From: a virus
Strand: one strand, 5' to 3'
Length of the DNA: 64,000 nucleotides
IMG/VR virus record: IMGVR_UViG_3300042860_003408
Location: 21,866 to 85,865 of that record
The first letter of the stretch is position 1. Each line of letters begins with the position of its first letter. The translations under genes and the position numbers were made by a program. Under the pieces are notes generated by a model, which worked only from the letters and a program-made list of their open reading frames with translations, did not search any database and had not been told where the DNA came from. Positions 5,841 to 54,406 of this stretch are shown here, one piece after another.

Positions 5841-6331
5841 TGAATAGCATAATATTTTCAGAACAAATAGATGCATTTTCTACATATGCCGACTCTAATC
5901 CAATTGAAGTATTCCACTTAGATGGAGATACGTATGGGATATATGAAACAGGCGAGATAAAGAACATTAACGGCGGATATAACGTTGGAGATAATATACA
6001 ATTTGTATCATTCTCTGTAAACACTAATCCGTCGGAAACAAAGGCTTTTGATAACGTAGAATTGCATTTTACAAATAACAATAGTAATCCACCGTCATAT
6101 GCATGGTTTACTAATACAAAGCAAAGTAGCTTGCAATCAACGAGCTCTGATTTCGACAACAGAGAAGGAACACATAAATTATCAATCCCAAGAGCTTCAT
6201 CAGACTTATTTGCTGACAGGATGAGGGACAAATTTATAATATGCAATTACGAGTTTATAAGAACTACGCATGATTCAAAATATTTCTCTTTGCCATATAT
6301 AAAAACAAAATTTAGATATTCATCAATATAA
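5840..6331 (+). CDS. Small probable structural protein, function unknown
   Basis: The product is 163 residues, polar and acidic, with no membrane segment and no motif I recognise. Its ATG shares one base with the stop of the muzzle gene (TAATG), and its own stop overlaps the next ATG in the same way. It is therefore translationally coupled inside the tail/cargo operon. Aromatic-rich beta-like stretches and this position make a tail accessory role plausible, but that is inference only. The start is fixed by the TAATG junction. Confidence 0.6.
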   Translation: MNSIIFSEQIDAFSTYADSNPIEVFHLDGDTYGIYETGEIKNINGGYNVGDNIQFVSFSVNTNPSETKAFDNVELHFTNNNSNPPSYAWFTNTKQSSLQSTSSDFDNREGTHKLSIPRASSDLFADRMRDKFIICNYEFIRTTHDSKYFSLPYIKTKFRYSSI

Positions 6332-10539: not shown

Positions 10540-13500
10540 ATGACAAGAGAAGACATTAAAAGGGCTTTGCAGGGTGAAGATACGAGATTTGGCGAATATG
10601 TTAGGTCTCGTAGCTCTGTTTATGGCCAAGGAAGAAGCGAACTTGACGAACTAAAACGCAGAAATGAATACGAAGAGGCTAAGCGCAAGCGCCCCTCTAA
10701 AGATGAACCTAAGCGCAAAGCGGCTCGCGATGAGTCAAAAGACGCAGAAGATGGGCAGAAAAAACTGCCACTTGAAAATGAAACTAAAAAAGGAAATGAT
10801 TATAACTTCTTTGCCGATTCATATAGAACGTTTGTAGGCGGAAAAAACCAGACAGAAATAGACAATGCTCTAGGAGAGTTAAAATACAACCTTCCTGTGT
10901 TTAAGTATTCATCAGATATGCTCTCATCAAAGGAGGTTCAATCTGATGAGGATTTATATAAGGCAGCTAGGTTTGCAAGGGAAATGCAGTCGAATGCCAA
11001 AGCACAGGCTTTATTTCAAAAAAATGAAGAACTGTCTGCAGAACAAGCCAGGCTTAAATCTCTATATGAAAGTGGAGATAAAAGCGTTTCTGCTGCATTC
11101 ATAAATAACGAGCCATGGAACCCAGAATCAAAAGGCAAAACAATATATAGTTTAACTGGGGCTGTGCAGCAAGGAGAAGGGCCTAGTTTTCTTGAGAAAG
11201 CAGATATGATGATGGGCGCGTCTCATGGATATGCTGAGTGGGAGCAAATGAAAGGAATGGTGAGTGGGTTATTTAGAACCGTTGGCACGTCATTGGTAGC
11301 AGCCGCTGTTGCTCCTGTTATATCTGTAATGGGCAAAGTATCTCTAGGAAATGCAGTTGGCAATATACTTGGAGGGCTTACACTTAAAACTGCAGCAGAT
11401 GTCGCAATTGATAAGCCGGTAGATCTAATATCAAATCTATCTGATGCAACTAGATTCTCAATGGGATATGTTCCAGCTGTAGCAGGTGGCCTAATCGGAG
11501 CTGGTGTTAATAAGTTTATGCCGTCTGGTGATGTAAGACAAGGTTATATTGATATAGACGACTCATTGGTTCCAGAAGATACTAAATATGCCTATTCAAA
11601 ATACAAGGACTTAATAAAAAACTGGTCAAAGGTTGGTGGAGATTTTGATGGTACAATTCCATCCATAGATGACGTGCTTGACGGAAAGGAGTCTCTACAC
11701 TCATATACTGGAGAAAAGGTTGGTAAATTTGACTCGGTATTAGCTAAAAAAACAAAAGATGCACAAGAAAGCATAAAGACTGACTTGAATGATCTTAGGA
11801 TGTGGGGAGCTCCATCTGAATATGCTACAAAGAAAGTAGAAGAAAATGACTGGTATTGGGGCAAGATGCTTAATACAAGTGGGATGTCTATGTCTGAGTT
11901 TGAAGGGCAGGTCGGCTTAATAGCATTAAATTCTGCTATATCTTTGGCTACAAAAAAGCCAACAATTGGAACTAAATTATTGTCTTCTCTAGCTCTTACT
12001 GGAGCTAACGCTGCTTTTGCTGTAAGAAGTAGAGATAGTGAATTCTTTTCTCAGTTTAGTCAAGCCTTTAACGAGAAGCAAGATGCTATACTTGGAGAGA
12101 ATGCTATATCTAAGATGTCATACGAAGAACTTCTATCTCATATATCTGAGCCAAAGGAAACTATGGACAAAGTAATGTCGCAATTTGGGAAGTATGATAA
12201 ATCTCAAGAGAGACATAAAAGAGAGACGCTAGAGATGCTTATTAGAACTGGAATTGTTAAATCAGATATACCTGGAATAAATGAAGCAGCAGTAGCCGCT
12301 AGCGATGGCTCGGATGAGCTTGCTAGACAATATAGGTCTATGATATACTCAGATATGGGTCAAAATGGATTAATGCTAGCTAGTTTAATGCCTATAAAAG
12401 GTGGTATTCCAAAGGCCATGCAAGGACTGGCAAAATCTACTTCTGATTATTATAAGAATCTATCATTATCGTCTTTTATTAGAAACAATAGAGCAGGAAG
12501 AGTTCTTGGAAAAACAGCTCAATTAGCATCAGAAGTTGGATGGGAGGCGTTTGTAGACGAACCTCTATTTGAAGAAATCCCACAAACAATGATGGATATG
12601 AAATTCAAAGAAGGCTCATTAAAAGAAAATGCAGGAATCTTTGGATCTTATTTGGATAAAAACAAAACCATAAGCACTGGCGCTAAAGCATTATTTGGAT
12701 TATCTGGAGACGAAAGATATGATAAAAACGCAGAATTGCTTGATACCTATTGGTCTACTGTTATGTCTGTAGCGTTTATGGGTGCAGGCAGAAACGTGAT
12801 ATCATCTCCTGCTCATATAAAAGAACTAAATAGAAGCTTTAATGCTGATAAATTATTTGATTCAGTTATAGAGCCAGGTATTAAGACATCTGCATTTAAA
12901 GCAAAGGCGTCTGCATATATAGGAGCTGTTAAGAATGGTCAATTTGATTTTGTAATTGAAAACTTAAAAGAACTTCAAAAGAATCCACCAGAAGGATATA
13001 CTGCAGAAGATATTACTAATGAAATTAAACTGGCTAAAAGAATTGCATCTATAGCTGATAGTAAATTTGTAAGAGAATATGCCAAGAAATCAGGTGGCTA
13101 TGGTTCAGAGGACCACTTATTGCTTACATCATTAATATCAGACCATGAGAACGCTGCAAGAGAAGGATATCTTGAGAGCAGAACGGCTAATGAAGCTGAG
13201 GCTAATCTTCTTGCTAATTTTGACGAGACTACATTTTCTAAATTAGTTACATCTATAAATACAACTAGGGAGGACGCAGATAAAATAAGCACTGGAGCTG
13301 CAATAGGTATTGCCATGCTTAGAAATAAACTAGCTGCTATTGCTACGATATCAGTGAATGACCCTCTTGAGTCTAAGGCTTCAAAAATAAAAAGCAACTT
13401 AATAACGAGAGCCGCATCAGATGATTTAGGAAGTGTATCTTCTAATTTAATAGATGCATTATTAAATGCTAAATTAATAACAGAGGAGCAGGGGGCTGAA

Positions 13501-16500
13501 CTTCTAAAAATAGAAAACTCTAAAGATCTTAGTGATGCAATTGATGAATTTGTTCCTATTGAGCTTAATGATGATATTAAGGACATGGCTTATGGATTAG
13601 TATCTTCATACGGAGCTCAATATGAAGAACATATGGCATCCATACTTAGAGGAGATCAAACTCTTTACAATAGAGAGAAAGACACAAAAGTAGATAGATT
13701 CCATGATGTAGACGAGCTCCTTGATATGCATAGAAAGTCTCTTGAATCTAATGAAAAAGAGCAGAGAGTTCTAGAGGCTGCTGAAACCAAAAGAGAAGAG
13801 AAAAAGAGGGAAGCTAAAACAAAGCCAGAAACAACTGTAGTAGCCGAGCCTGTTGTAGAACCTATTGTAGTTGAATTGGAATCATTAGAGCCAAAGTGGG
13901 AAATACCATCTGCTCCTGAAATAGTTGAATACGAAAGCCTAGAGTCTGCTCCAGAAGTAGAGACAGAGCAAGTTCCACCACTAGACGAGACAGATATTCC
14001 TCCATTAACTGAGGCCGACTTGAACTCATCAGTAAATAGAGCCGAGGAATTGTTAGCAGATGACAACTTCGATCCATTTAGCGATTACGATAAAGAGGAG
14101 GAGGCTGCTAAACAGGCCGCAGATAATCAGGAGGAGCAGGCTCCCACACAAGGAATTACAAATAATGGGACAATTTACCCAGTGCTGGACTTAAGTAAAA
14201 TAGATACAGATAATTTTATATATGTAACTCACCAAACAGATATCGTCGGGCTAGAACAAATTCTTTCAAGAGGGTTTGATATAAGGAATGGGCTAAATGG
14301 AACATCATTGTTTGGGAATACAGAATCTATTCAAAGCCAAATGGACAGTATTAATTCTGGACACGGCCATAGAGGGGCTAGCAGGATGATTGTATTCGCA
14401 TTCCCTAAATCAAAATTCGGGAATGTAAGGCAGCTGGATGAAATATCAGATATGCTTATCGATGAGGGAATATTTTCTATTCCCGGCCAATATGTATTTG
14501 GAGTATTCACCGAAAATAATAAGCCAATCACACAAGAAGCTGCTCCACAAAAATCCAAACAAGACGAGCTTAAGGAGAAATTAAACGCTAGACTAGCTCA
14601 CTTGGCTGATGTTGCCACGGATGTTCTTGGATCTAAAATGAATGCTACTGGAAAGCAATATTCAAGCAAAGACTTCTTACCAGCAATGACTGGGGTACTA
14701 GAGGTTATTATGGAGCTTGGATATACATCATTCGTAGATGTAGTATCTAATGCATCTGATGCTATGAAAGGAAATGCAGTACTTGCAGGTCTTATTGATA
14801 GAATTAGCCCTAAACAATGGAGAGCTGCTTATAACTCGGCTGCAGACTTTGCAGAAGGTACACAATCAGAGGAGGAAGTTATAGCCTATTCTAATGATGA
14901 TGTAAAAGCTATTGTTGCTGGAACATATAAGAAAGAAGAAGAGATCGATATCAATGAAGATTTAGAAGATCTTAATCAGCCAGAAAAGACTGAGGAAGAA
15001 GAGAATAAAGAAGCGTCTAAAGAGATATCAGAAATAGTTAAAGGCGCTGCTGCTATATCTATTGCAATGGAGAAAGAGGATTCTTCTGACTTTGTAAATA
15101 TAGATGACGAGGCTCCTGGCACAATTGACGAGGATAAAGTCTCAGTTAGATTTGGTAGATTGCCACATACACTATTTACGTCTAATCCAGAAATAATTAA
15201 ATGGTTAAAAACTCCAAAAGCCTTAGAAGGCGCTACATTTGAAATAGAGATATCTACAATACCTTTTGATAAAGTGCCACAATCTAGAAAGGACGCAGGA
15301 GACTATATCCCATTCGACATCAATAATCCTAATTCATGGAACGAGGCTGCAATATTTGTTAAAATAAAAGATAAAAATGGCGTAGTTAGACCATTGAATA
15401 TAAGCTTCCACAACATAGCAGTTAATAGCATGTTTGAGGATTCTGATGGCAATATGTATCCTAAGTTCAACGAACAGGATATCGCTGATTTAGTTGATTT
15501 TAGAAATAAGATAATAGCTTTATATGCAGAAAGCTTAGCAAATGGTTCTAATAAGGAATTAGTTGTATCTGGCGTATCTATAGGTAGAGCTAAGATAAAA
15601 TTAAACAGAAAGAATGGTAAGCCGGTACAGAGAAGCCTGTCTAAAATCAAAGGACTAATAGAAGGCTTTAATGGAGATTTCTCTACTATAAACAACAATA
15701 CATTAAGCTTAGCTTACGGTAGGGGGTGGAGAGGTAATTTTACTGTAGTTGGAATTGACGGAGTGATAGGTGATACTGATGAACAGAACTCTGGTAGTAT
15801 GTTTGCAGTAAAGATTGACCCTGTACTTGGAACTAAAAGAAAGATAAAATTAAATAAACGTAGATTCTCAGAAGATAAAGATACTGCAGAATTTATATAC
15901 AAACTACTTATAGACTGGAACATGTCTAAAGGTGAGTTAGCGTTAGACCGAGACGGAAATGTTGTTTTGGCCGGAGACGGTGCGTCTAATAGGTTAGGTA
16001 TATCAGCAGAAGGCTTATTGTCTAAGATAGTTAACTTTGGAAAAAGAACTCAAATTAATAAGAAGGACTTGCCAATGTTGACCCACCTGCTTCCAAAGCA
16101 ATTCTACGTAGAAGGCAATTCACTATATCTAGGAGAAGCTAAGTTTGACATATCAAATCCAGCTGGAATATCTCCTGAAATTAAAGCTCAGATAATAGAC
16201 TACATTAAGAATAACTTTAACTGGTCTATCAATGCTCATGACTTATGGAATCAAACTGGAGCTAATAGAAAGGTGGCTGATGTGTTTTCAGGTATCACCG
16301 ACTACTTCAGATCTAATCCAGAAGCTAAATCAATTAAGTTCTTTGAAGGAATGGAAATTAAGAGAGAGGACTTAGGTTTAACCTGGGAAGCTTGGATTGT
16401 TAAATACGATAAGCTTATATCTGACGTTGCCGATGATATCTTTGAATCTCCGTATACATTCTTAAATGATGTAGAGCTTGCAGATAGAATGGATAAGCCA

Positions 16501-19500
16501 ACTATCAAGAAAGTTGCAAAGAAAAAGACAGATGCCAAAGAAGCCGCTTTAGAGCCTGTTTCTGACACGCAAAAAGCAGATGTAGTAGAAACATCAACTA
16601 ACACTCAAAAGTCGCTAGAATCGCCTGAAAATGGCCTTAAAAGCGATGCTAGCGAGCAAGTTTCTGGTAAGAAGAAATTTAAGAAGAGGACTAGTGGCGA
16701 TGTAGATAAAATATCTGACTTAGGTGTAAATGCTGTTGGTCCTACAAGACTGTCAACTAGTCATGCAGAGGAAGATAATTTAACTAATAGCGAACAAGCT
16801 TGGGCTAGAAAAAGGATATCATCTCTTATTGAAATCAGTGATACTGAAATTGAAATGGAGAACGGTGATATTGCTATGGGTGTAGCTAACATCTTAAAGA
16901 ATATTATTACACTATTCTCTGGCGCAGAAAGAGGCACTGCTTACCACGAAGCATTTCACATTGTGTCTCTTGGGTTAATACCAAGAAATAGAAGGATGAT
17001 GATATATGACTCAGTTAGGCGTACTATACCATCATTGAGTGATGCTACAAATAAGGATATAGAGGAATACTTAGCCGAGGAATTTAGAGTATGGAGAGAG
17101 ACTAATAAGATCGGCATTAAGATACCGATGCTTAGATCTGTATTCAGAAAATTCTCCAACCTATTTACTGGAATGAAGTCTGCAAACAAGTCTGATATAA
17201 ATAGATTATTTGAGGATATCGAATACGGTATATTTAAAAACAAAAAAGGTCCAAAGGCTAAATCTGAGCAATCTAAATTCTTTACTAGATTCTATGTAGA
17301 TGGAGCTGCTAGAACTTTGAAGTCAAAAGGATTCAATGCTATCAATACATTGGATATGCAATACGAAGTAGCCAAGGGGTTAGCATTCTCATTCATAGAA
17401 TTATCTGGAGTTGAAAAAGTTTCTGATATCCGCAATATGAGTAAAGACGTACTATATGATAGTATTCTTGCAGAGTATGAATATATGGAAGAAAATGGAA
17501 TGGAAGATACATTGAAATATAAAATATATGAAGATATATTGGATAAATTTGATGAGGAAATAGTTCCATTAATAAATAAAGAATTATCTTCATTTGGGAT
17601 AGCCCCAGCTGTATTCGATGTAGATGGAAACGAAATAGAGGATAACGATAAAGATATCGTAAGTAACGAGATAGCTAAACATACAGTAGAATCATATAAG
17701 GTTCCTAAGTCTGATAATATTCCAATGGAGGTTAAATTCTTCTTATGGACTATCCCTCAAAAAGAGAAAAATGCAGACGGTGTTGTTGTAGATAAATTTA
17801 ACCCATTAACTGGCTTTAAATTATTCTACGACCAGACCACGTCGTGGGTTACAGTTGCAAGCGATTTAGGTCATTTGAAATCGTACACCGAGATGAGGAA
17901 TAAAATATATTCTCTTGGTGTTGTATCTGGTAATTTATTCTATAGAAGCGTATTAGATAAGCTTGACAATTCTAGCGATAGATTTAAAACAGCATTCTTT
18001 GCCGCAGTAAAATGTCATAGACATGACTTTGCGAGTATAGCATTTACTGGAGACAAAAATGGAAACATGGCTGAAGCCGACAGAAGACTTAGGGTTATAG
18101 AGTCAAAGGCTACAACTGCCAAGATAACTAAGCCAAAAGAATGGGGTGAGAACATGATGTCTATTGGATTTTTATTCTCTGATAGTGTTGATGGGCCAGT
18201 ATTTAACAAGGCTAATGCCGAGTCTATAATAGCCAGACATAAAGCACTTGTATCATTTGCCGGTAGATTAACAAATCCACTAGAAGCTGAAAAGATTACT
18301 GACGAGCAAATTACTGCTGCTATTAATGAGTATATTGATATATTTAATAAAATAGGCATATCTATAAACGATGCAACTATAGATGAGATAATCAAACATT
18401 CTTATCCAAATGCATCTAGAAAAAACGCTATAGCTAGTTTAATCACCCAATCAAAACCAGAACACCCATCATTTGTTCTTACCAACATCATAACAGACCT
18501 AGTTAAGAATGATGGAAAGCTTATAGTAAACAGGAAAGAGAAGGTAGATAGAAAAGAGATCTACAAGTCTCAGAAGTCGACAGGATTTATAGCTATGATG
18601 TATTTCAAGGCCAATCCAAATATAACAGAGACCACTTCTACCGGGGCTGATGGAGCCAAGGTATATGAGATATCTCTACCAAACTATGTGACAGAGACGG
18701 CAGAAAGAATATCTACTGACACTGAATACAGGGATAAAGTAATGCAATCTAGTTTTGCTTCAGGCAGGATTGGAGGAGCAGCTTTCGAAGGAGACAGAAC
18801 TACTGTTGGAGGCTCTATAGTACTAGACCAATTACAATCAGGTGAATCAAAGGGATTAAAGGTTAAGACATTCTTGAAATTCTATGAAGATAATTCTGGA
18901 GATAAAGGTAGAGATTACTTTGCACTATCTCCTATGGAGGATTATATGATGAAAATGGCAGCCACTAATTCTGGATATATGTTATGTCCTACTATGGCTG
19001 ATAAGAAATCGTGGTACATGTTTGCTGGCATTAAAATGCCGTCATTTAGCGTATCTAAACAAGAAGGAACTCCTATTGCTGTTGATATGAATTCATTGAA
19101 AGATGGGCTAGTTAGACAATCAATCACATTCCCTACAAAAACAGTAGCTATATTCAATGGATACTTTGAGGCAGAATATCTTGCAATGCAGGATGCTTGG
19201 AGTGCATGGAAGGTTGCAATGGGTAATAAAAATAAACTAGAACAAACATATCACTACGGCGGATTCTCACAAAGAGGTGCAAATAAATATACCACAAAAG
19301 GCAAATGGAATTCAGGACTTGGTAATGGTATGAAATTTAGGCATTTCGATGAAATTTCTATTGACATAAAAGGCGACGGCTCATTTGTAAATCTAAATGA
19401 ATATCAAGAGGAATTGATAGACCAATATGGAGTAATTAATGGGATGACTAGATTCTTTGAGGAAATGGATAGTAAAATATTCAATGCATCAAATGAAACT

Positions 19501-22500
19501 AAATTCCAAATAATGAATGCCACCTTGGCTAATTCAATATCTAGAGAATTAAAGTGGCTTGTTAAGAATGGCGCTATAACTGTACAGCACAAAAAGAATG
19601 GCGTATTCTATAAAAATAAGAAGCTAGATAAATCTATATTTAAAGATACTAGAGCTTACTTCATCAAACAATCTAATTTAAACTCAAAAGAATCTCTTGT
19701 TAGTGACTATGCCGACACGTCTGCTATTTACAATATGGTTGCTGAGCATATGGTGAACACATCCATATCTACAATAGAATTTGAAAAGATATTCTCAAAA
19801 GACCCTGCATTCCATAAAGATCCTGATGCTAAGATAAAAAGGTTATCTTCTATACTATCAACAGGTACTCCATGTTTATCTGAAACAGGAAGATCCACAT
19901 TTGTGTCTGCTGAGTTAAATGACAATGAAATACCTTCTCCTAATTTATCTGAGATAAAATCAAGGATGATTGCTGCTCATGTAAACGAAAGACATGGCGA
20001 TGAATTAAATATGACTTTTAATGAAATATTAGAGGCTATTAATTCTGGAAATATGGACGAGATAAATAAGTTATCAGACATCAAAATGATAATGAATATA
20101 GTTGATGCTCAGACTGCTGGATATAATAAAGTAAATGAAACAGACGCTTCTGTGTTCATATCTCCTGTTATGTATAGAGATATACTTAGAAAATTAGGAA
20201 GATGGAATGAAGACTTAAATGAGGCATTTGATTTATTGGAATCAGAAGATATGTCTTGGATGGAAGATTCTGCTAAATATCTAAAAGTGATGGAGCTTGC
20301 TCTTAATCCGCTTAAGATGATATATTATGGAGATAAGTTCAGTAATGGGTTAAATATTCCAAAACTAGACAAGATGGCAATGTTCTGTTTATTTAGATCT
20401 GTCGCTACAGGTGCAAATAAAGCTCTATATGAAAGGATGAACAATCCAGAAGATGGTGCAAGCAAAATAGATATGGTCGCATTCTCATCTGCTGTTAAGT
20501 CTGGGAATAATAATCCAATAGACTTCTTTGACAAAGACGGTAATGTATCTAACCTTGATAAGTTTACAGAAGAAATTCAGCACTTTGAATTCCTTAGACA
20601 TCAGCTTGAAACTGAAGCTCACGAGGAAGAGGAGGTTGGATTGGCAACTCAGGTTCAAAAAGTTGCAATGTCCAATATAGTGTCAGATAAAGTTTATTCA
20701 AATATAACAATAGGCGGAAATAAAGGTGCTACAGGAAGACAGTTAATAGAGGAATGGTCAAATGCATTAACAGAGATATCTAATAGGGGTAGAAATGATG
20801 TAGAGAATGAATTAGGAATTAAATACGAAGGCGGAGTATTGACTTTCGATAAAAAGAAATTATACGGATTCTTGCATTCAGAGGCAATCAAGTCTAATAT
20901 GACTGATGATGTCTACGAGACCCTTATGAAGGCAGCTGAGCCAAATAGCAGGATAACACTTCAGGCCATGGCTGATAGAGATTGGATTGAGAGCAAACTT
21001 GTTTCATTTATTATGAAGAAGACTCTTGATGTCAATACCCCAGGTGGTGCATTTATTCAGATGTCTACATTTGGTATAAATACACTTACAGACAGCATAA
21101 CTAGCGAAGGATATAAGCTTAATGGTGGAAGAAAGTTAAATTACATGAATGCTGACGGAAGCATGGATTGTGTCGTTTCTCTATCATTATTTAAAGATGT
21201 TTTGCCAGAGGATGTTAAGTTGATGTCTCCAGTTAAGCAAAGAGATTGGCTTTTAATGCATAATATAATCGGTCCTGACTCAGATCCTGCTGCATTAGGA
21301 TATCGTATTCCAACTCAAGGTATGTCATCTGTATCATCATTAAAGATTATAGATGTTATCCCTAAGATAATTGGAGATACTATAATTCTTCCAACAGAAT
21401 TCACTGCGCTCACAGGCTCTGACTTTGACGTTGACAAGTTGTATTTAGCTAGATATAACTATGCTAAAAACCCAGCTGGTCGATTCGAAAAGGTTGAGTT
21501 TGATGACAACAAGAAAAGTGAGAAGAATCCAGAGAAGTCTAAATGGCAAGTAAATTCAAATGCTGCTATCCAAAATAGATTGTTGGATGTAATGATGGCT
21601 GCAATAACAGAGCCATCTTCTATACATGAAACAAGGCTTCCATTAGATGCTACTACTAGTGTAATAAAGGACGATATTCTTCCAGACATAGACTCAGTTA
21701 CTGGCACTGGAGAAAAGCGAGGAGCTCTTATGTTTACATCACCTTCATATCAAACAGATAAGAAAGTTGAGTATTCTACAGGCAAGAAGAATTTGGGTAT
21801 AATGGCACTTGCTAATACAAACCATATTTATACGCAGATGACTAATCTGACTATAAATCCAAAACAAAGGACAGCCGCTAAACACGGAATATTTGAACTT
21901 GGAGGAATATATGGAGCTGACGGAATGCGTATATTGGACTGGCTATCTGCCATGATTAATGCTCACGTTGACGTTGCCAAAGATCCATATATCATACGAC
22001 TAGGTGTTAATGAACATACTGTTAATATGGTTGCATTCTTACTTAGAGCTGGTATTGGCGGAAACGCATTCTACTTCTTATCACAACCATCTTTAAAAGA
22101 GGCTTATGCTGAGGTTGAAGAATTTAATGGCAAATATGAAGTAAATAAAGATTCTGTTAAGAAGTTGCATGAAGTAATAAAGGACAAGCTACAGAAATAT
22201 AGAGCTATGGCTGCTAGAATTGATGGTGGTAAAAACGCTCAATACGTAGAATCTTTATTCGTTGAAGATAAATATGGTAGACGTGATATGCCGACAGGAG
22301 ATGTACTTAATAGTAGATCTAAATTAAAGTCTGGCCTAAATAAAGACTTGTCTAATTTTGATTATCTATTGCACCAGATATTGGTAATGGAAACTTATTT
22401 AGAATTACTTCCATATTCTAACGAATTATCTGAGCTTGTCAAATACTCTCAAATTGAGACCAAAAAACAAGGTAAATCATTTATAGCAAATAATGAGTTT

Positions 22501-25500
22501 ATTTCAAAAGTAAATTCATTGATATTGGATGATGATAATGGAACGTCTGTATTTAGTGGCGTAAGAAACTATTATGAATCTACACCATTGATGGCAAGGC
22601 TTAGAAATAGCTCTGGGTTAATAGTAGGAATAAGTCGTGGTTTATTATTTAGAACCTCTAGACAAGTATTATCTATTCTTAACAAAGTAAATATACTTGC
22701 AGGAAGAGAAGGTTTTGACAATAGCAAATTCATGCATGGCGTATCAAGGTATGTCGAGACGGCAATTAAGGATTCTTTTTATAGAAAATATGCAGAACAA
22801 AACGATATAGATATAAATAGCTTGTTCTTTGGAGAAGACACTGTCGCTAAGGAATTATTCCATATCAAGTCTGCTATAAATAACGGTCATTTACCTGGAT
22901 ATGAAAACAATGTCTTCTTGAAGGTATTGTCATATACTATGCATAGTAAATCAGAGGAGTCTTATCCAGACCATGTTACTATAGACTCATCTGCGAAGGA
23001 CGATAAAAATATTCAAGAGAAGATAAAGTACTATTTTTCTGAATTATTAAATCCAATACTTGAAGATGAATCGCAAGAAGGCCTTAGTGAACAAGAAATA
23101 AGCGCACTTAAATCTAGAAATAAAGATAGGGTTATGCTTAAGGATTTTGCTAAGAGATTCATACTATATCAATTTTATAGCACTGGTGACAATAGCGCAT
23201 TAAATTACGTTAAATTATCTGAGGATGATAGAATTTCACTGGAGATTAATTCAGGGTTAGTAGATGCTAATACTGGAGCACCAATCAAGATTGCACTATA
23301 CGACTTTATAGATGATGTGTTGACGGAACTGAATGAATTATCATATGAACATACTCCTGGAGTAGCGCTTCAAAATGATGTTAAATTCTTGGAAGATTTG
23401 TTCATTAGTAGATGGTGGGATAATGAACTAGTTCCAACTACCACTGCATATAAAGTAAGAAAAGGTCAATTTGATGAAGATGGGCATCCATTAGTAGATC
23501 AGAAACCTAAGAAAATGTCGACTAAAAAGATGCTTGGTATTGAATATGAATTGGAATTTATAGACACTGCTGCTAGACCTATTGGATCTACATCTGATGG
23601 AAAACATCCAGTATTTAAGCCATTCGTTAAGATAATCAAGACAGGCACCAATGGAAGACAGTTTGAAATACTATATAAATACATAGGAAACTCGACAAGG
23701 TCTAATGCTAAAGGCGATGTGTCTATTAAACCAGTATATGTTGCTGTTGACAAAAAAGGTAGCAAAGCATCTGGTCTTGCACTTATAGAGTCTAATTCAA
23801 AGACTTCTGTAATAAAGACAAACGAACTTCCACAGTCAAATATAAATTCATCTATATTCTCGAAAGAGGCTGGATTTGATAAAGTAAGCTGGTTTGATAT
23901 GTTTATGGGTCTTGAAGATAAGTTCGTTGAGAGCTTAGGTGCTAGCACAGTAGATAAAGCAGTGACTAATGCAATAGATAACAATAGTTATTCTATGTCT
24001 TATTTAGATAATGCTATAGAAGATGCTGGAATTACAGATAGCGCAAGGATAGCCTCAATGAGGGAGGAATTCGCTAGAGGCATTTTAAGCCGTTTTAACG
24101 AACTCAATTTACCGGATAATACAATTGCCCAGGAAGATAGAGAAAGTGCCTTAGAAGAGCTTAAAACAAGCGCAGAGGCCTATCTAGGACAATTTATTAG
24201 GAAAGTAGAAATGCAACCTAGCAATAATGCTAGAAGCATTAACATATACGCTGGTACTGGAGAAAATGCAAACTTAAGTAATCTCGCAATAAGACCATTT
24301 ACTTTGCCAACAGGATCCTCTAGGCTGAATATGATTAAGGGAGATATCAGCTTTACTAGCGTAGAGCAAGCGTTCCAATTAGCCAAATACACGTATACTG
24401 GAAATGTAAGAGATGATGGTAGCTGGCAGCCGCAAATGCTGTCTGGTGGAGGCTTTGGGAATGAGATGTCAAAAGAGGATGATGAGTTCAATTGGAAACT
24501 GGCTGGACAAATACAGAACAGTAAAAACCCTGCTGAGGCCAAAGCCCTGGGAAGACAATTTAAACATTTGGACGTAGATAGATGGAATAAAGCCTCTTCT
24601 TCTATCATGAAAGAGTTATTGCTAGAATCATTTAAACAAAACCCTGATGCACTTCAAGAATTATTAGCAACTGGGAACGCAATACTTACTCATACGCAAG
24701 ATAAAGGCAAGTGGAGTACTGAATTTCCTCGACTTCTTATGGAGGTTAGAGATGAATTAAACGCAGATCTTACTACAGAAGCAGAAGGCGAACAGGATTT
24801 AACTAATATTAACGAATCTAGCACGCTTACTGGATATCAAGGAAGAAAGTCTGATGTAGCAGACAATAGAGAATATAATTTCTATTCCACATCAGAAGAG
24901 GAGGCCAGGGATTATGGAAGTAATGTTTCTAAAAAACGAATAAGCCTAAATAACTTCTTATTTAAAACAGAATTACTACCCAATGGGACGTCTGTCTATA
25001 CAGAGGCCTATGATAAGATATATAAAGCATTTCAGGAAAAATATGGATCTCCATTTGATATATTGAATAATGGAACACCAGAAAAAATAGAGCTTATGAA
25101 TAAGTTCTTTGAAATGGTAAGAGAGGCTGGATTTAGTGGATATACAGAGATAAGAAAGAATAATAATTTTAGTCAATCAGATAATAGGTATATTGTTACG
25201 TTTAATCAAAAGTCTACTGCTAAATCAATTTCGATTGCATCTGAATTCACTAATCATTCTGGTGGCGCTTATGGTGCTGACACCTTCTGGGATCAAATTG
25301 GTAGAGAATATGGTGTAACTGATAATAGGCATTACAGACAAGAAGATAATAAGTCTTTATCTCAAGCGCTTAGAAATAAGAAAGTTGAAGCCACTGTTCT
25401 TACAACGGAACAGATGGATAAAGCTAGAACTGAGATAGAGAAATTGCTAGGCAAGAAATACCCGGATACAAAAGAAGGCAACCTGCAAGTAAGAAATTAT

Positions 25501-28500
25501 TATCAAGTGTCTAATGCAGATGCTGTATTTGCAATAGCAAAAATATCTGGAGATGCCAAATTTAATTCTGGAACTGTGTTCGGCGGAACAAACACTGCAG
25601 TTCAATTAGGAGTTCAATTAGGAAAGCCAGTATATGTATGGGATGTAACCTCTGAGCAATGGATGCGGTTTGTTCCGGAAATGCGAAAAGATGATAAGAT
25701 TGTAGGAAAGTTTGTCCCAACAAGCACTCCTATGCTCACAAAGAACTTCGCTGGCGTTGGTACTAGAGATATTGAAAACTATAATACTTTAAATAAGACT
25801 ACTAATCAGTGGGAGCCAAGAAAAGAGTATTTAGGAATAGAGAAAGAAAATGCCGCAAAACAGGCTATTAGAGATGTGTTTGAAAATACATTTAAAAATC
25901 AAGAAAACACTACAGCTAGTGAAGAAGAGCATGAGTCTACTATAAAATCTATAGAGGGAAAACAAGAATCGTTAAGTAAGCAAGACCAGGAAACTGTTAA
26001 TGAAGTATTTAATGATGGAGGAAAACCTAAGATACTTATAGCCAGCGAGACGTCAGACCCAGTATTCCATGTTAAGAAAATAAAAGAAATTGTAGCCAAC
26101 AGAAAGACTAATGGGGTAAATGCAATGTATCTTATAACAAAACATGACGGACTCCCATTGAAAGAATTGGCTGAATTAAAAATTCCTAAATTCTATCACT
26201 TCAGCATAACTACTCTTGGCGGCACTAAGTATGAGCCAGGCGTTATGAAATACGACGACTTATTAGATAGGATTGAGACATTTATAAAAGAAGGCCTTTT
26301 AAATCCAAATCTAATAACAGTTAGGATTGACCCTATCATTCCAGGAGTTACTAATTTTGATGACGTAGAGCGTGTAATAAAGAGAGCGTCAGAAATGGGA
26401 ATTAGGCAGATTAAGTTCAGTGTAATGGATAGCTATTCAGGATCTAAAAACGATAGATTTATAGTAGCTAAAATGAAGGAACTTGGCTACGATTTTGCAG
26501 CATATAAAACAAATGACAATATTAAATTTAGCGCTAAACAGGAGATAATAGATGAATTAAGTGTTAAAATGCGCGATCTTTGTAAGAAATATGGAATACG
26601 ACAATTAAGTTCTTGTGCTGAAAAAGTAAACGTAGACGGAGTTCAAAAATTAGGTTGTTTAAATGTTCAATCTATAAACGCTGCGATGGGAAGGACTGAT
26701 GTTACTCATGTCCAAGGAAATCAAAGACAAGATTGTAGTTGCTACGGGAATAAGGTGGATGCATTAAGATATAATGATAAATGCGCAAGTAGCTGTGTAT
26801 ATTGCTATGCAGGACATAACAGTGTTGTTTCGCTTAAGTATTATAATGAGGATGGTAGTCTAAAGGTAAATGATTTTACGAAGACATCAAATACTGAACA
26901 AGCAATTATCGAGCCGGAAGTGACACAAGAAAGATTCACTGAATTTGGGACTACGTATGCTTTTGGATTTGTTGACGGAAAAATGACTTCGGCAATGTAT
27001 CAGCAAGGAAATGGCGAATTTAATAATATGAATATGTTATCTGCAGAGAAGGCATATTCTAGATTGAAATCAAAAAGTGAAAATGCTGTCGTTAGTGAAG
27101 TAACGCCTGATACTCCATCAGAAGCTGATATAAATCTATTTGGAAAAGATATTGACTTAAGTAAGATTGGTATTCCTTATCAATTAAACGATGAGCAAGA
27201 AGCTGCATTGAAAGCAATAGAAGCATGGGTTAAAGATAAAACAATAACTACCCCATTCTCGCTATTAGGCTCTGCTGGTTCTGGTAAAACATCCATAACT
27301 AGAGTACTTATAAATGCACTTAGCAATGCTGAGATTACATATCAATTATTAGCTCCAACACATAGAGCTAAAGGTGTATTATCTAGAGCTACTGGCAAGA
27401 AAGCTAAAACATATCATGCTTACTTTCAATTAGTCCCAGAGGCCAGAGAGGTTGGTATGAAGCTTGAGTTTGGCGGAGCTACTAATTATGAATCTAATGT
27501 AGATCTATATATAATAGATGAGGTTTCTTTAATCTCAGATAAGAGTGTAGATGAAATACTTAAAGTTGCGGAAGCTACTGGAGCTAAAGTATTGTTTATT
27601 GGAGATCATGCTCAGTTATATCCTGTTGGAAATACTGACGCAAAAGGAATGCCTAAACAATCAATTGGGTTAGAATCTCCAACCAGCATAGTTCTTAATA
27701 AGGTTATGCGTGTTGCGAATGGAAATCCATTAGCAGATGTATTAAGTATTATGAGAATGTATCAGGCTCCTGGGCTTATGAATATCAATGGAACTGAATA
27801 TAATTTTACCGACCAGTCTAAAGCAATCTTCTCTAAGAGAGATGCATTTAACGACCAAGGCGGCGTTGTATTTGTAGGCGAAGCTGATAGAGCGAAAGCA
27901 GTAGAGCAATTTGTTGATATGTTCTTTACGTCAGAAGACTATTCTAAGGATGTTAATTTCGCTAAGATATTGGCATTTAGAAATGATGTAATAGACTCAA
28001 TGAATGCCTATGTTAGAGCTAAATTAGGAAAGAAAGGATTGATTGAGGTTGGAGAACAAGTCATAGGATATAGTCAAATAAAGGCTGGAAAGGTAGACTT
28101 GGTTGCGAACGACGATGAATATGTTGTTGACAGCATAGGAGCTCCTAGAGAGATTACGTCATACGCAGTGCCTGGAGTAACATTGAAAGTTGTTCCAATA
28201 GAAATACGAATGACTACTGGTGCTTCCGCTGGAGGCGTATTTAATTTATTAACTGATTATAGCGAAGAGAATATGCTTGCAATACGAGCGGCTATTCTTA
28301 AGCGGAAACAGGAGATAAGTAATATGGACTATCAAGAAAAAAGAGAGGCTAATAGAAACTTCTTTATTGCATTGACTAAAGATTTCATTACGCTTAAACC
28401 TATAAAAAATAGCTTAACTGATAACGAAAATGCGTCAAATAATTTAAAGGATAGAACTATTGGATTTACATACGCATCTACAGTACACAAAGCTCAAGGC

Positions 28501-28752
28501 GGAGAATATCAAAACGTTCTTGTTCTTGATTCGGACCTCAGAGGAATAGATAAAAACTTTGATGGATTAATTTACAGGAAAGCATTGTATACGGCTGTAT
28601 CTAGAGCTCGTAGAACTGCTACTGTAATTACTAATACTAAAAAATTAAACTCAGAGAAAAAACAAGTTTCAGCTGATGGAACTAAAATACCTGAGTCGTT
28701 TAAACCAAATAATAGTCTGATTGGAAATGAAAGACCGTCAGATAAATGTTAA
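10540..28752 (+). CDS. Giant virion polyprotein: RNA polymerase with peptidase, ART, NADAR, SLOG, DUF1848-like and SF1 helicase domains
   Basis: A single uninterrupted frame encodes 6,070 residues. In order: a charged N-terminus; an ADP-ribosyltransferase-like fold near 1225-1330 (Y-V-T-H then I-L-S-R-G-F); a zincin with H-E-A-F-H at 2136-2140 and a downstream E-Y-L-A-E-E near 2176; and the RNA polymerase, whose catalytic D-F-D-V-D lies at 3628-3632 (S-D-F-D-V-D-K-L-Y). After these come a NADAR domain at about 4567-4745, a second ART-like domain at about 4763-4893 (Y-S-T-S-E-E-E-A), a SLOG/Rossmann-like domain at about 4899-5098 (G-G-A-Y-G-A-D, later F-A-G-V-G-T-R) and a DUF1848-like domain at about 5160-5444 with C5415-x3-C5419-x2-C5422. 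The C-terminus is an SF1 helicase (G-S-A-G-S-G-K-T at 5577-5584, D-E at 5660-5661, V-S-R-A-R-R). Acidic and lysine-rich linkers (about 1068-1168 and 1988-2057) separate modules. The polymerase motif is the crAss-like virion type. Cleavage into several chains by the internal peptidase is inference. Confidence 0.85.
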   Translation: MTREDIKRALQGEDTRFGEYVRSRSSVYGQGRSELDELKRRNEYEEAKRKRPSKDEPKRKAARDESKDAEDGQKKLPLENETKKGNDYNFFADSYRTFVGGKNQTEIDNALGELKYNLPVFKYSSDMLSSKEVQSDEDLYKAARFAREMQSNAKAQALFQKNEELSAEQARLKSLYESGDKSVSAAFINNEPWNPESKGKTIYSLTGAVQQGEGPSFLEKADMMMGASHGYAEWEQMKGMVSGLFRTVGTSLVAAAVAPVISVMGKVSLGNAVGNILGGLTLKTAADVAIDKPVDLISNLSDATRFSMGYVPAVAGGLIGAGVNKFMPSGDVRQGYIDIDDSLVPEDTKYAYSKYKDLIKNWSKVGGDFDGTIPSIDDVLDGKESLHSYTGEKVGKFDSVLAKKTKDAQESIKTDLNDLRMWGAPSEYATKKVEENDWYWGKMLNTSGMSMSEFEGQVGLIALNSAISLATKKPTIGTKLLSSLALTGANAAFAVRSRDSEFFSQFSQAFNEKQDAILGENAISKMSYEELLSHISEPKETMDKVMSQFGKYDKSQERHKRETLEMLIRTGIVKSDIPGINEAAVAASDGSDELARQYRSMIYSDMGQNGLMLASLMPIKGGIPKAMQGLAKSTSDYYKNLSLSSFIRNNRAGRVLGKTAQLASEVGWEAFVDEPLFEEIPQTMMDMKFKEGSLKENAGIFGSYLDKNKTISTGAKALFGLSGDERYDKNAELLDTYWSTVMSVAFMGAGRNVISSPAHIKELNRSFNADKLFDSVIEPGIKTSAFKAKASAYIGAVKNGQFDFVIENLKELQKNPPEGYTAEDITNEIKLAKRIASIADSKFVREYAKKSGGYGSEDHLLLTSLISDHENAAREGYLESRTANEAEANLLANFDETTFSKLVTSINTTREDADKISTGAAIGIAMLRNKLAAIATISVNDPLESKASKIKSNLITRAASDDLGSVSSNLIDALLNAKLITEEQGAELLKIENSKDLSDAIDEFVPIELNDDIKDMAYGLVSSYGAQYEEHMASILRGDQTLYNREKDTKVDRFHDVDELLDMHRKSLESNEKEQRVLEAAETKREEKKREAKTKPETTVVAEPVVEPIVVELESLEPKWEIPSAPEIVEYESLESAPEVETEQVPPLDETDIPPLTEADLNSSVNRAEELLADDNFDPFSDYDKEEEAAKQAADNQEEQAPTQGITNNGTIYPVLDLSKIDTDNFIYVTHQTDIVGLEQILSRGFDIRNGLNGTSLFGNTESIQSQMDSINSGHGHRGASRMIVFAFPKSKFGNVRQLDEISDMLIDEGIFSIPGQYVFGVFTENNKPITQEAAPQKSKQDELKEKLNARLAHLADVATDVLGSKMNATGKQYSSKDFLPAMTGVLEVIMELGYTSFVDVVSNASDAMKGNAVLAGLIDRISPKQWRAAYNSAADFAEGTQSEEEVIAYSNDDVKAIVAGTYKKEEEIDINEDLEDLNQPEKTEEEENKEASKEISEIVKGAAAISIAMEKEDSSDFVNIDDEAPGTIDEDKVSVRFGRLPHTLFTSNPEIIKWLKTPKALEGATFEIEISTIPFDKVPQSRKDAGDYIPFDINNPNSWNEAAIFVKIKDKNGVVRPLNISFHNIAVNSMFEDSDGNMYPKFNEQDIADLVDFRNKIIALYAESLANGSNKELVVSGVSIGRAKIKLNRKNGKPVQRSLSKIKGLIEGFNGDFSTINNNTLSLAYGRGWRGNFTVVGIDGVIGDTDEQNSGSMFAVKIDPVLGTKRKIKLNKRRFSEDKDTAEFIYKLLIDWNMSKGELALDRDGNVVLAGDGASNRLGISAEGLLSKIVNFGKRTQINKKDLPMLTHLLPKQFYVEGNSLYLGEAKFDISNPAGISPEIKAQIIDYIKNNFNWSINAHDLWNQTGANRKVADVFSGITDYFRSNPEAKSIKFFEGMEIKREDLGLTWEAWIVKYDKLISDVADDIFESPYTFLNDVELADRMDKPTIKKVAKKKTDAKEAALEPVSDTQKADVVETSTNTQKSLESPENGLKSDASEQVSGKKKFKKRTSGDVDKISDLGVNAVGPTRLSTSHAEEDNLTNSEQAWARKRISSLIEISDTEIEMENGDIAMGVANILKNIITLFSGAERGTAYHEAFHIVSLGLIPRNRRMMIYDSVRRTIPSLSDATNKDIEEYLAEEFRVWRETNKIGIKIPMLRSVFRKFSNLFTGMKSANKSDINRLFEDIEYGIFKNKKGPKAKSEQSKFFTRFYVDGAARTLKSKGFNAINTLDMQYEVAKGLAFSFIELSGVEKVSDIRNMSKDVLYDSILAEYEYMEENGMEDTLKYKIYEDILDKFDEEIVPLINKELSSFGIAPAVFDVDGNEIEDNDKDIVSNEIAKHTVESYKVPKSDNIPMEVKFFLWTIPQKEKNADGVVVDKFNPLTGFKLFYDQTTSWVTVASDLGHLKSYTEMRNKIYSLGVVSGNLFYRSVLDKLDNSSDRFKTAFFAAVKCHRHDFASIAFTGDKNGNMAEADRRLRVIESKATTAKITKPKEWGENMMSIGFLFSDSVDGPVFNKANAESIIARHKALVSFAGRLTNPLEAEKITDEQITAAINEYIDIFNKIGISINDATIDEIIKHSYPNASRKNAIASLITQSKPEHPSFVLTNIITDLVKNDGKLIVNRKEKVDRKEIYKSQKSTGFIAMMYFKANPNITETTSTGADGAKVYEISLPNYVTETAERISTDTEYRDKVMQSSFASGRIGGAAFEGDRTTVGGSIVLDQLQSGESKGLKVKTFLKFYEDNSGDKGRDYFALSPMEDYMMKMAATNSGYMLCPTMADKKSWYMFAGIKMPSFSVSKQEGTPIAVDMNSLKDGLVRQSITFPTKTVAIFNGYFEAEYLAMQDAWSAWKVAMGNKNKLEQTYHYGGFSQRGANKYTTKGKWNSGLGNGMKFRHFDEISIDIKGDGSFVNLNEYQEELIDQYGVINGMTRFFEEMDSKIFNASNETKFQIMNATLANSISRELKWLVKNGAITVQHKKNGVFYKNKKLDKSIFKDTRAYFIKQSNLNSKESLVSDYADTSAIYNMVAEHMVNTSISTIEFEKIFSKDPAFHKDPDAKIKRLSSILSTGTPCLSETGRSTFVSAELNDNEIPSPNLSEIKSRMIAAHVNERHGDELNMTFNEILEAINSGNMDEINKLSDIKMIMNIVDAQTAGYNKVNETDASVFISPVMYRDILRKLGRWNEDLNEAFDLLESEDMSWMEDSAKYLKVMELALNPLKMIYYGDKFSNGLNIPKLDKMAMFCLFRSVATGANKALYERMNNPEDGASKIDMVAFSSAVKSGNNNPIDFFDKDGNVSNLDKFTEEIQHFEFLRHQLETEAHEEEEVGLATQVQKVAMSNIVSDKVYSNITIGGNKGATGRQLIEEWSNALTEISNRGRNDVENELGIKYEGGVLTFDKKKLYGFLHSEAIKSNMTDDVYETLMKAAEPNSRITLQAMADRDWIESKLVSFIMKKTLDVNTPGGAFIQMSTFGINTLTDSITSEGYKLNGGRKLNYMNADGSMDCVVSLSLFKDVLPEDVKLMSPVKQRDWLLMHNIIGPDSDPAALGYRIPTQGMSSVSSLKIIDVIPKIIGDTIILPTEFTALTGSDFDVDKLYLARYNYAKNPAGRFEKVEFDDNKKSEKNPEKSKWQVNSNAAIQNRLLDVMMAAITEPSSIHETRLPLDATTSVIKDDILPDIDSVTGTGEKRGALMFTSPSYQTDKKVEYSTGKKNLGIMALANTNHIYTQMTNLTINPKQRTAAKHGIFELGGIYGADGMRILDWLSAMINAHVDVAKDPYIIRLGVNEHTVNMVAFLLRAGIGGNAFYFLSQPSLKEAYAEVEEFNGKYEVNKDSVKKLHEVIKDKLQKYRAMAARIDGGKNAQYVESLFVEDKYGRRDMPTGDVLNSRSKLKSGLNKDLSNFDYLLHQILVMETYLELLPYSNELSELVKYSQIETKKQGKSFIANNEFISKVNSLILDDDNGTSVFSGVRNYYESTPLMARLRNSSGLIVGISRGLLFRTSRQVLSILNKVNILAGREGFDNSKFMHGVSRYVETAIKDSFYRKYAEQNDIDINSLFFGEDTVAKELFHIKSAINNGHLPGYENNVFLKVLSYTMHSKSEESYPDHVTIDSSAKDDKNIQEKIKYYFSELLNPILEDESQEGLSEQEISALKSRNKDRVMLKDFAKRFILYQFYSTGDNSALNYVKLSEDDRISLEINSGLVDANTGAPIKIALYDFIDDVLTELNELSYEHTPGVALQNDVKFLEDLFISRWWDNELVPTTTAYKVRKGQFDEDGHPLVDQKPKKMSTKKMLGIEYELEFIDTAARPIGSTSDGKHPVFKPFVKIIKTGTNGRQFEILYKYIGNSTRSNAKGDVSIKPVYVAVDKKGSKASGLALIESNSKTSVIKTNELPQSNINSSIFSKEAGFDKVSWFDMFMGLEDKFVESLGASTVDKAVTNAIDNNSYSMSYLDNAIEDAGITDSARIASMREEFARGILSRFNELNLPDNTIAQEDRESALEELKTSAEAYLGQFIRKVEMQPSNNARSINIYAGTGENANLSNLAIRPFTLPTGSSRLNMIKGDISFTSVEQAFQLAKYTYTGNVRDDGSWQPQMLSGGGFGNEMSKEDDEFNWKLAGQIQNSKNPAEAKALGRQFKHLDVDRWNKASSSIMKELLLESFKQNPDALQELLATGNAILTHTQDKGKWSTEFPRLLMEVRDELNADLTTEAEGEQDLTNINESSTLTGYQGRKSDVADNREYNFYSTSEEEARDYGSNVSKKRISLNNFLFKTELLPNGTSVYTEAYDKIYKAFQEKYGSPFDILNNGTPEKIELMNKFFEMVREAGFSGYTEIRKNNNFSQSDNRYIVTFNQKSTAKSISIASEFTNHSGGAYGADTFWDQIGREYGVTDNRHYRQEDNKSLSQALRNKKVEATVLTTEQMDKARTEIEKLLGKKYPDTKEGNLQVRNYYQVSNADAVFAIAKISGDAKFNSGTVFGGTNTAVQLGVQLGKPVYVWDVTSEQWMRFVPEMRKDDKIVGKFVPTSTPMLTKNFAGVGTRDIENYNTLNKTTNQWEPRKEYLGIEKENAAKQAIRDVFENTFKNQENTTASEEEHESTIKSIEGKQESLSKQDQETVNEVFNDGGKPKILIASETSDPVFHVKKIKEIVANRKTNGVNAMYLITKHDGLPLKELAELKIPKFYHFSITTLGGTKYEPGVMKYDDLLDRIETFIKEGLLNPNLITVRIDPIIPGVTNFDDVERVIKRASEMGIRQIKFSVMDSYSGSKNDRFIVAKMKELGYDFAAYKTNDNIKFSAKQEIIDELSVKMRDLCKKYGIRQLSSCAEKVNVDGVQKLGCLNVQSINAAMGRTDVTHVQGNQRQDCSCYGNKVDALRYNDKCASSCVYCYAGHNSVVSLKYYNEDGSLKVNDFTKTSNTEQAIIEPEVTQERFTEFGTTYAFGFVDGKMTSAMYQQGNGEFNNMNMLSAEKAYSRLKSKSENAVVSEVTPDTPSEADINLFGKDIDLSKIGIPYQLNDEQEAALKAIEAWVKDKTITTPFSLLGSAGSGKTSITRVLINALSNAEITYQLLAPTHRAKGVLSRATGKKAKTYHAYFQLVPEAREVGMKLEFGGATNYESNVDLYIIDEVSLISDKSVDEILKVAEATGAKVLFIGDHAQLYPVGNTDAKGMPKQSIGLESPTSIVLNKVMRVANGNPLADVLSIMRMYQAPGLMNINGTEYNFTDQSKAIFSKRDAFNDQGGVVFVGEADRAKAVEQFVDMFFTSEDYSKDVNFAKILAFRNDVIDSMNAYVRAKLGKKGLIEVGEQVIGYSQIKAGKVDLVANDDEYVVDSIGAPREITSYAVPGVTLKVVPIEIRMTTGASAGGVFNLLTDYSEENMLAIRAAILKRKQEISNMDYQEKREANRNFFIALTKDFITLKPIKNSLTDNENASNNLKDRTIGFTYASTVHKAQGGEYQNVLVLDSDLRGIDKNFDGLIYRKALYTAVSRARRTATVITNTKKLNSEKKQVSADGTKIPESFKPNNSLIGNERPSDKC

Positions 28753-54025: not shown

Positions 54026-54406
54026 TTAGCTAGAATTTATGTCTATCAGATCAGATCTTGCTGCGTGCTCGCCTGGTGGCGCTTTTGCATTAAGATTAAT
54101 CACTTGCGACTTATCATGACTTCTTGAAACGAAAGTCATGGTAAGCATAGAGTGTCTGTTTGAATAGGACTCCACTTTCGTATTTGTCTGCAACTTCACT
54201 GAGACTGCAGTATACTTAATGGTATTCTCGGGCAAGACAACATCTAAATTAGTTACTAAGGCAGATATAGCTAGTACATCTTTCTTCAGCTCTGCTAGTT
54301 TAACTTCATCAGAAGCTATTATTGCAGAACTATAACCAACCGCGAAAAAGCTAAGGAGATACACTAGTCTTACTAGCATTTCCCATGTTTGATACATCTT
54401 CTTCAT
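54026..54406 (-). CDS. Single-pass membrane protein overlapping the sigma-factor gene (candidate anti-sigma or accessory)
   Basis: The product has 126 residues with one membrane segment at about 10-32 (L-V-R-L-V-Y-L-L-S-F-F-A-V-G-Y). The remainder contains a Ser/Thr-rich beta-like domain and would face outward if the positive-inside rule holds. The gene overlaps the ECF-type sigma gene by 56 bases, which implies coupled translation. ECF sigma genes are often followed by a membrane anti-sigma gene, so that role is a reasonable hypothesis. The small cytoplasmic N-terminus argues for caution. Confidence 0.5.
   Translation of the reverse strand: MKKMYQTWEMLVRLVYLLSFFAVGYSSAIIASDEVKLAELKKDVLAISALVTNLDVVLPENTIKYTAVSVKLQTNTKVESYSNRHSMLTMTFVSRSHDKSQVINLNAKAPPGEHAARSDLIDINSS

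What the first reader, a model, noticed from the sequence alone, without database searches (positions are those of the whole stretch)
10540..28752. A 6,070-residue virion polymerase polyprotein carrying at least seven other domains
One uninterrupted frame links a zincin, the D-F-D-V-D RNA polymerase, ART-like folds, NADAR, a SLOG-like domain, a DUF1848-like Cys domain and an SF1 helicase. Seen: the motifs and their order. Known: crAss-like phages package a single-chain virion RNA polymerase, and polyvalent proteins carry peptidase and ART domains. Inferred: the whole set enters the cell with the DNA and is released by the internal peptidase.
Basis: partly seen in the sequence, partly recalled or inferred. 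Interest (0 to 1): 0.8.

Follow-up and report, generated by a model that had tools for sequence, protein, structure and literature searches.

The report
Cysteine-coupled giant phage virion RNA polymerase
This is the giant RNA polymerase that a crAss-like gut-type phage carries in its particle, with several accessory enzyme domains attached. Wherever relatives split this chain into separate proteins, both new ends carry a cysteine, which suggests that phages keep the pieces tied end to end by disulfide bonds until they reach the host cell.

Summary
The 6,070-aa frame is real. It is the virion RNA polymerase (vRNAP) of a crAss-like phage: the core matches phi14:2 gp66 at E=1e-43. NADAR, SLOG/DprA-like, DUF1848 and SF1 helicase domains are confirmed, and a zincin motif is invariant in relatives. 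The two ART folds are not supported; a weak ART-PolyVal match lies in the next ORF. Giant fused vRNAPs are normal in Suoliviridae (4.3-6.4 kaa), so size is not new. This one has the longest accessory tail of 122 relatives.

The giant ends ...SDKC* and the next protein starts MCPN. Across about 200 relatives, nearly every break between vRNAP-block genes carries a cysteine on both sides (break 2: 113/122 and 121/122; held-out set 14/14). The chain end carries none (0/98), and five fully fused 5.1-5.6-kaa chains have no cysteine at all. The rule also holds where the partner gene is on the opposite strand. I infer head-to-tail disulfides in the virion, opened in the reducing cytoplasm. Release by the internal peptidase is not shown. 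Existing reduced/non-reduced virion mass spectra of phiCrAss001 could test the coupling.

The parts
10540..28752 (+). Giant vRNAP ORF, 6,070 aa; 14 Cys in total, the last one being the final residue
11557..13179 (+). N-terminal conserved region, aa 340-880; homologs in 32 relatives; function unknown
15184..16491 (+). Well-folded unnamed domain, aa 1549-1984 (model pLDDT mostly 75-97), resembling the same part of other crAss giants (cr50_1, BFVD E=2e-27)
16777..17409 (+). Zincin-like metallopeptidase region, aa 2080-2290; HEAFH at aa 2136-2140, invariant Glu at 2176
17464..22140 (+). RNA polymerase region homologous to phi14:2 gp66, aa 2309-3867
21421..21435 (+). Catalytic D-F-D-V-D motif, aa 3628-3632 (DFDID in phi14:2)
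24265..24702 (+). NADAR domain, aa 4576-4721
   Evidence: PF08719 E=2.7e-13; NCBIfam TIGR02464 E=3e-10
24772..25221 (+).
25222..25899 (+). SLOG/DprA-like domain, aa 4895-5120
   Evidence: phrog_768 E=1.1e-10
26074..26811 (+). DUF1848 domain, aa 5179-5424, ending in conserved CxC...CxxxCxxC, a radical-SAM-like cysteine motif
   Evidence: PF08902 E=2.2e-18; alignment
27181..28626 (+). SF1 helicase, RecD/Dda-like, aa 5548-6029
   Evidence: PF13604, PF13538; phrog_325 E=5.6e-58
28747..28749 (+). C-terminal break cysteine (aa 6070, ...RPSDKC*)
28773..35804 (+). Downstream chain protein (gp65-like), 2,343 aa, starts MCPN; only two Cys (aa 2 and 836)
28776..28778 (+). N-terminal break cysteine of the downstream protein (aa 2)
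29955..30404 (+). Weak ART-PolyVal match in the downstream protein
   Evidence: PF18760 E=2.6e-5, below the curated cut-off
6331..10523 (+). Two upstream Cys-free ORFs (750 and 646 aa), corresponding in position to other cargo/ejection proteins; no break cysteines
1164..5840 (+). 1,558-aa virion structural protein upstream of the cargo block
   Evidence: phrog_28748 E=5e-113

Best explanation
[quoted passage not shown] It is packaged with the gp65-like protein encoded next to it and enters the host cell with the DNA to transcribe early genes and blunt host responses. Phages of this group keep the vRNAP block as one continuous thread. Some do this by gene fusion; where the chain is divided into two or three genes, they pair a cysteine at the C-terminus of one piece with a cysteine at the N-terminus of the next. 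These cysteines most likely form head-to-tail disulfides in the virion, so that the pieces are drawn through the narrow tail in order. In the reducing cytoplasm the bonds open and the pieces separate. Shown: the domains, the break-cysteine rule and its absence at chain ends and in fused chains. Inferred: the disulfide itself, ordered threading, release on reduction, and the roles of the accessory enzymes.
For: RNA polymerase homology, E=1.2e-43. Homologs found in virions. Break-cysteine rule (dereplicated): at 122 splits after the polymerase, Cys in the last 8 residues 113/122 and in the first 9 of the next protein 121/122, against 14/148 (last 6) and 10/148 (first 9) in other long ORFs. C-terminus of the last protein: 0/98. 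Polymerase N-terminus: 59/61 when split from the upstream piece, 5/62 when fused. Five fully fused chains of 5.1-5.6 kaa have no Cys at all. Eleven middle proteins have Cys only at both ends, and 13 giants of 3.7-4.9 kaa have a single Cys at or within a few residues of the C-terminus. On the polymerase tree, 8 of 8 independent contrasts of split versus fused go with Cys (sign test p=0.008). Nine of nine distinct opposite-strand partner proteins also end in Cys. Break 1 lies anywhere from 263 to about 3,200 aa before DxDxD, yet carries Cys. Next-gene start codons occur in all three frames relative to the stop, with gaps from -20 to +718 nt. Held-out genome contigs: 7/7 break-2 and 7/7 break-1 junctions carry both Cys. 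phiCrAss001 virions contain structural disulfides, and cargo must pass constrictions under 50 A (PMC10172136).
Against: No biochemical evidence for the bond was found, and the phages assemble in a reducing, often anaerobic cell. Nine junctions lack Cys in the last 8 residues; most of these have one a little further in, but L090 has none in the last 40. Many recoded relatives, and the window itself (DUF1848 and five others), have interior cysteines. Relatives are not independent: there are only 8 clean evolutionary contrasts for break 2, and for break 1 about 5.6 of 10 agree, none oppose and 4.4 are uninformative. In-virion presence of the window's C-terminal bay is not tested.
Confidence: 0.6

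Rival explanations
1. The terminal cysteines are functional but not joined by a disulfide to the neighbouring piece: they act as packaging or docking tags, or as a non-covalent interface between the subunits of the polymerase complex.
For: C-terminal contexts share a loose pattern (Lys common before and after Cys) and N-termini often read CPN, which could be recognition motifs.
Against: It does not explain why chain ends carry none (0/98), why fused chains lose both, or why otherwise Cys-free proteins keep exactly one Cys per broken end.
Confidence: 0.22
2. One reading: the polyprotein is cut after injection by its internal zincin, which releases the domains.
For: Zincin active-site residues are invariant and present in 98 of 116 fused giants. 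Zincins in polyvalent proteins are predicted to process them (PMC5512222).
Against: Several complete single-chain vRNAPs lack HExxH at that position. No cleavage data. The zincin sits next to the place where other phages break the chain, but HExxH is also present in some broken chains. It can coexist with the disulfide model.
Confidence: 0.15
3. The cysteines are a by-product of a nucleotide-level signal at gene junctions (translational coupling, readthrough or frameshifting).
For: Many junctions are tightly spaced (median gap 2 nt).
Against: The rule holds when the partner gene is on the opposite strand (9/9). All three frames and gaps up to +718 nt occur, and both TGT and TGC are used.
Confidence: 0.02
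4. The terminal cysteines bind a metal shared between pieces.
For: One Cys from each side is available, and some contexts are His-Cys.
Against: Only 1 of 117 C-termini has a second Cys, and His is near in only 17/117 C-termini and 16/117 N-termini: too few ligands.
Confidence: 0.04

Closest known systems
phi14:2 gp66 virion RNA polymerase (PDB 6VR4) with gp65 and gp67
   Same: Homologous polymerase core with DxDxD, gene order after the virion block, a gp65-like protein downstream
   Different: In phi14:2 the chain is three proteins with two cysteine-bearing breaks; here the first two are fused and a bay of accessory domains is added
Giant fused vRNAPs of Suoliviridae (cr118_1, cr50_1, cr130_1, cr272_1)
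   Same: Single ORF with zincin and polymerase, next ORF gp65-like, terminal Cys pair at the break; some carry helicase, NADAR, SLOG or DUF1848
   Different: The window combines the most of these accessory domains and the longest tail after DxDxD (2,445 aa; 122 compared); cr272_1 is longer overall (6,386 aa)
Polyvalent proteins of phages and conjugative elements (PMC5512222)
   Same: Multidomain, next to virion genes, zincin, predicted to be injected
   Different: Polymerase is the gp66 type, not the N4 type; ART is not confirmed in the giant
N4 virion RNA polymerase and P23-45 tape-measure-fused RNA polymerase
   Same: Giant phage polymerases delivered with the DNA
   Different: Different polymerase lineages or fusions; the break-cysteine rule was not examined there
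Phage NAD+/ADP-ribose counter-defence modules (PMC9503650)
   Same: NADAR and SLOG domains predicted to process ADP-ribose signals
   Different: Here they are built into the virion polymerase chain rather than standalone

Membership tests
crAss-like virion RNA polymerase | Sequence homology to phi14:2 gp66 including DxDxD | tested here: met
   6vr4_A E=1.2e-43 with DFDVD aligned to DFDID
crAss-like virion RNA polymerase | Encoded downstream of a Crassvirales structural block (TerL, portal, MCP) | tested here: met
   TerL phrog_6681 E=2e-138, portal phrog_6547 E=2e-156, MCP phrog_11589 E=1e-135 in the same record
crAss-like virion RNA polymerase | Two double-psi beta-barrels in one chain | not tested
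   No model made of the polymerase core; homology only
crAss-like virion RNA polymerase | Present in the virion | not testable with these tools
   Shown for homologs, not for this phage
Polyvalent protein | Several unrelated enzymatic domains in one polypeptide next to virion genes | tested here: met
Polyvalent protein | Zincin-like metallopeptidase | tested here: met
   Invariant HExxH plus third Glu in a 33-sequence alignment; the fold match in PDB is not significant
Polyvalent protein | ART domain (common, not obligatory) | tested here: inconclusive
   Not supported in the giant; weak ART-PolyVal in the next ORF
Disulfide-coupled chain (proposed) | Cys at both ends of each gene break, none at chain ends or in fused chains | tested here: met
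Disulfide-coupled chain (proposed) | The two cysteines are actually bonded in the virion | not testable with these tools
   Needs non-reducing mass spectrometry or gels

The most novel reading that the evidence does not exclude
crAss-like phages and relatives keep their virion RNA polymerase block as one covalent thread, by gene fusion or by head-to-tail disulfides between dedicated terminal cysteines placed at whatever point the chain is broken. This would be a redox-released protein train for ordered ejection through the phage tail, a principle not described in the papers searched here.
Probability: 0.58. Interest if true: 0.88.

Novelty: new variant of a known kind. Interest (0 to 1): 0.76.

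Why it matters
How megadalton-scale cargo leaves a phage capsid in order through a narrow tail and then becomes active is an open question for the most abundant gut phages. A simple sequence rule (a cysteine on both sides of every break, none at the chain ends) makes a covalent, redox-released thread directly testable, including with mass spectra that have already been taken. It would also give a way to recognise cargo-chain members, their order and wrongly annotated start codons in uncultured phages. The shuffled accessory bay shows where to look for injected counter-defence enzymes.

Tried and rejected
ART folds in the giant: Pfam at E<=10, own HMMs across 198 relatives and two AlphaFold models gave no support. 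Foldseek against PDB gave no significant hit for either model. A first IMG/VR scan with the single window protein found nothing; alignment queries were needed. Readthrough, frameshift or translational coupling as the cause of the terminal Cys was rejected by frame and gap spread and by opposite-strand partners. A metal site was judged unlikely for lack of ligands. An intein relic or native chemical ligation was considered and dropped: no intein sequence, and the downstream Cys is usually not the first residue after Met. Size as a novelty was rejected. No paper in the held library mentions DUF1848, and none found ties terminal cysteines to crAss vRNAP. The phi14:2 structure paper is not held, so prior mention there cannot be excluded.

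Full report
What is there. The frame 10540-28752 (+) is open for 6,070 codons under the standard code. The window is positions 21866-85865 of an 85,865-bp virus record. The part before the window encodes crAss-type terminase, portal and major capsid protein (E about 1e-135 to 1e-156). The ORF follows a virion structural protein and two Cys-free proteins and is followed by a 2,343-aa protein. The polymerase region aligns with the crystallised vRNAP of phi14:2 (6vr4_A, E=1.2e-43), with D-F-D-V-D on D-F-D-I-D. NADAR, DUF1848 and helicase pass Pfam cut-offs. The SLOG/DprA-like domain matches PHROG 768, has relatives in 25 other chains and models well. The zincin has invariant H2136, E2137, H2140 and E2176 in a 33-sequence alignment. 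The two ART folds fail every test made here; a weak ART-PolyVal match is in the next ORF instead.

How ordinary it is. Single-ORF vRNAPs of 4,328-6,386 aa occur in every Suoliviridae genome inspected in which the ORF was complete. A review states up to about 6,000 aa, and multidomain transcription proteins were described by Yutin et al. 2021 (PMC7886860). Giant size and multidomain character are therefore known. The tail after the polymerase is a bay of interchangeable enzymes: helicase, NADAR, DUF1848, SLOG, DUF7831, RNase H and PDDEXK occur in relatives, and where several are present their order is shuffled. L035 has DUF1848-NADAR-x-SLOG, L068 has helicase-DUF1848-SLOG, and L111, L120 and L137 carry helicase-SLOG near the polymerase protein's N-terminus. 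The window has the longest such tail of 122 and the most of these domains among 198 chains.

The unexpected observation. Comparing the ends of the block proteins showed that the giants, which are very poor in cysteine, end in Cys, and that the next protein begins with one. In phi14:2, where the chain is three genes, both junctions show the pair: gp67 ...TIC*, gp66 MACK...ECK*, gp65 MSCK. In phiCrAss001, gp47 (2,341 aa) has one Cys, at position 2,339; gp50 has Cys at 5, 1,334 and 2,404; gp49 has one, at 5. gp47 is on the opposite strand from gp50.

Survey and controls. From 198 chains (IMG/VR and GenBank phages), with no use of cysteine in choosing start codons, break 2 shows C-terminal Cys in 113/122 and N-terminal Cys in 121/122. 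The end of the last protein shows 0/98. Polymerase N-termini show Cys in 59/61 short (split) and 5/62 long (fused) proteins; of those five, three follow an ORF that itself ends in Cys. Other long ORFs in the same loci show 14/148 and 10/148. Five fully fused proteins of 5,065-5,639 aa contain no cysteine. Eleven middle proteins have cysteine only at both ends, and thirteen giants have exactly one, at or within a few residues of the C-terminus. On a polymerase tree, break 2 gives 8 independent contrasts, all agreeing (p=0.008); break 1 gives about 5.6 agreeing, none opposing and 4.4 uninformative of 10. As a held-out test I applied the rule to phage contigs binned in genome assemblies: 7/7 break-2 and 7/7 break-1 junctions carry both cysteines, and a fused C-terminus carries none. 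Loci cut off before a junction (L211, L218, L224, L228, L230) and L227, a doubtful relative, were not scored. Some of these contigs resemble survey members, so they are not fully independent. The apparent exception crAss002 is explained by an annotated start 36 codons too early: L184, a near-identical relative, starts MSCTPSN, the same internal Met-Ser-Cys.

Alternatives tested. Frames of the next gene relative to the stop are 90, 29 and 24 in the three phases, with gaps from -20 to +718 nt; with the opposite-strand partners (9/9) this argues strongly against readthrough, frameshifting or coupling. Break 1 ranges from 263 to about 3,200 residues before DxDxD, so the cysteine goes with the break and not with one homologous domain. 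Lack of additional Cys or His argues against a metal site.

Mechanism. The simplest reading is that the pieces of the thread must stay covalently joined up to ejection: by peptide bond when fused, by disulfide when split. phiCrAss001 virions contain intermolecular disulfides elsewhere, and its cargo must partly unfold to pass constrictions under 50 A. Reduction in the cytoplasm would separate the pieces. In the window this links a 6,070-aa and a 2,343-aa protein. The accessory enzymes would then be delivered at once: NADAR and SLOG against ADP-ribose-type signals (as proposed for phages in PMC9503650), the helicase for early DNA transactions, DUF1848 unknown but with a conserved CX3CX2C radical-SAM-like motif. 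These roles are inference. Whether the zincin cuts the chain is open. It is conserved, but several complete single-chain vRNAPs lack it.

Limits. The disulfide is not shown. Papers under subscription, including the phi14:2 structure paper, could not be read. Common descent of breaks in related phages lowers the effective sample size. Genome completeness of the window's record is unknown.

Noticed in passing
window 54351-54956 (-): A 201-aa protein with sigma-70 region 2 and region 4 domains (Pfam E about 1e-11), a phage-encoded ECF-type sigma factor.
   Followed up: no
window 50135-52327: About 2.2 kb without any ORF of 80 aa or more under the standard code and without an Rfam match, between two minus-strand genes.
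   Followed up: partly
window 26074-26811 and homologs in L035, L013, L068, L063, L083, L084: DUF1848 conserves CxC then CxxxCxxC at its C-terminal end, like a radical-SAM cluster motif in an unusual position; weak profile matches to radical SAM and photolyase/SplB-like families.
   Followed up: partly
L015 (crAss002) 12711-25448: The annotated start of gp33 appears to be 36 codons too early; the terminal-cysteine rule and L184 point to an internal Met-Ser-Cys start.
   Followed up: yes
L019 (cr108_1) 17842-18133: The polymerase gene is interrupted inside the catalytic loop (...AGSD | ...YDIDK...) by about 290 bp, possibly a self-splicing intron.
   Followed up: no
L003, L004, L007, L009-L014, L016 and most Suoliviridae-type IMG/VR loci: TAG is recoded in the giant ORF of 59 of 198 chains; the window's ORF and its nearest relatives (L024, L029, L030, L032) use the standard code.
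   Followed up: partly
L111, L120, L137: Helicase plus SLOG modules sit near the N-terminus of the polymerase protein, just after break 1, a second insertion site for the same accessory set.
   Followed up: no
window 38153-39385 (-): A 410-aa protein matching a phage peptidase family (phrog_4191 E=2e-47) with weak M42 similarity, in the replication-side gene block.
   Followed up: no
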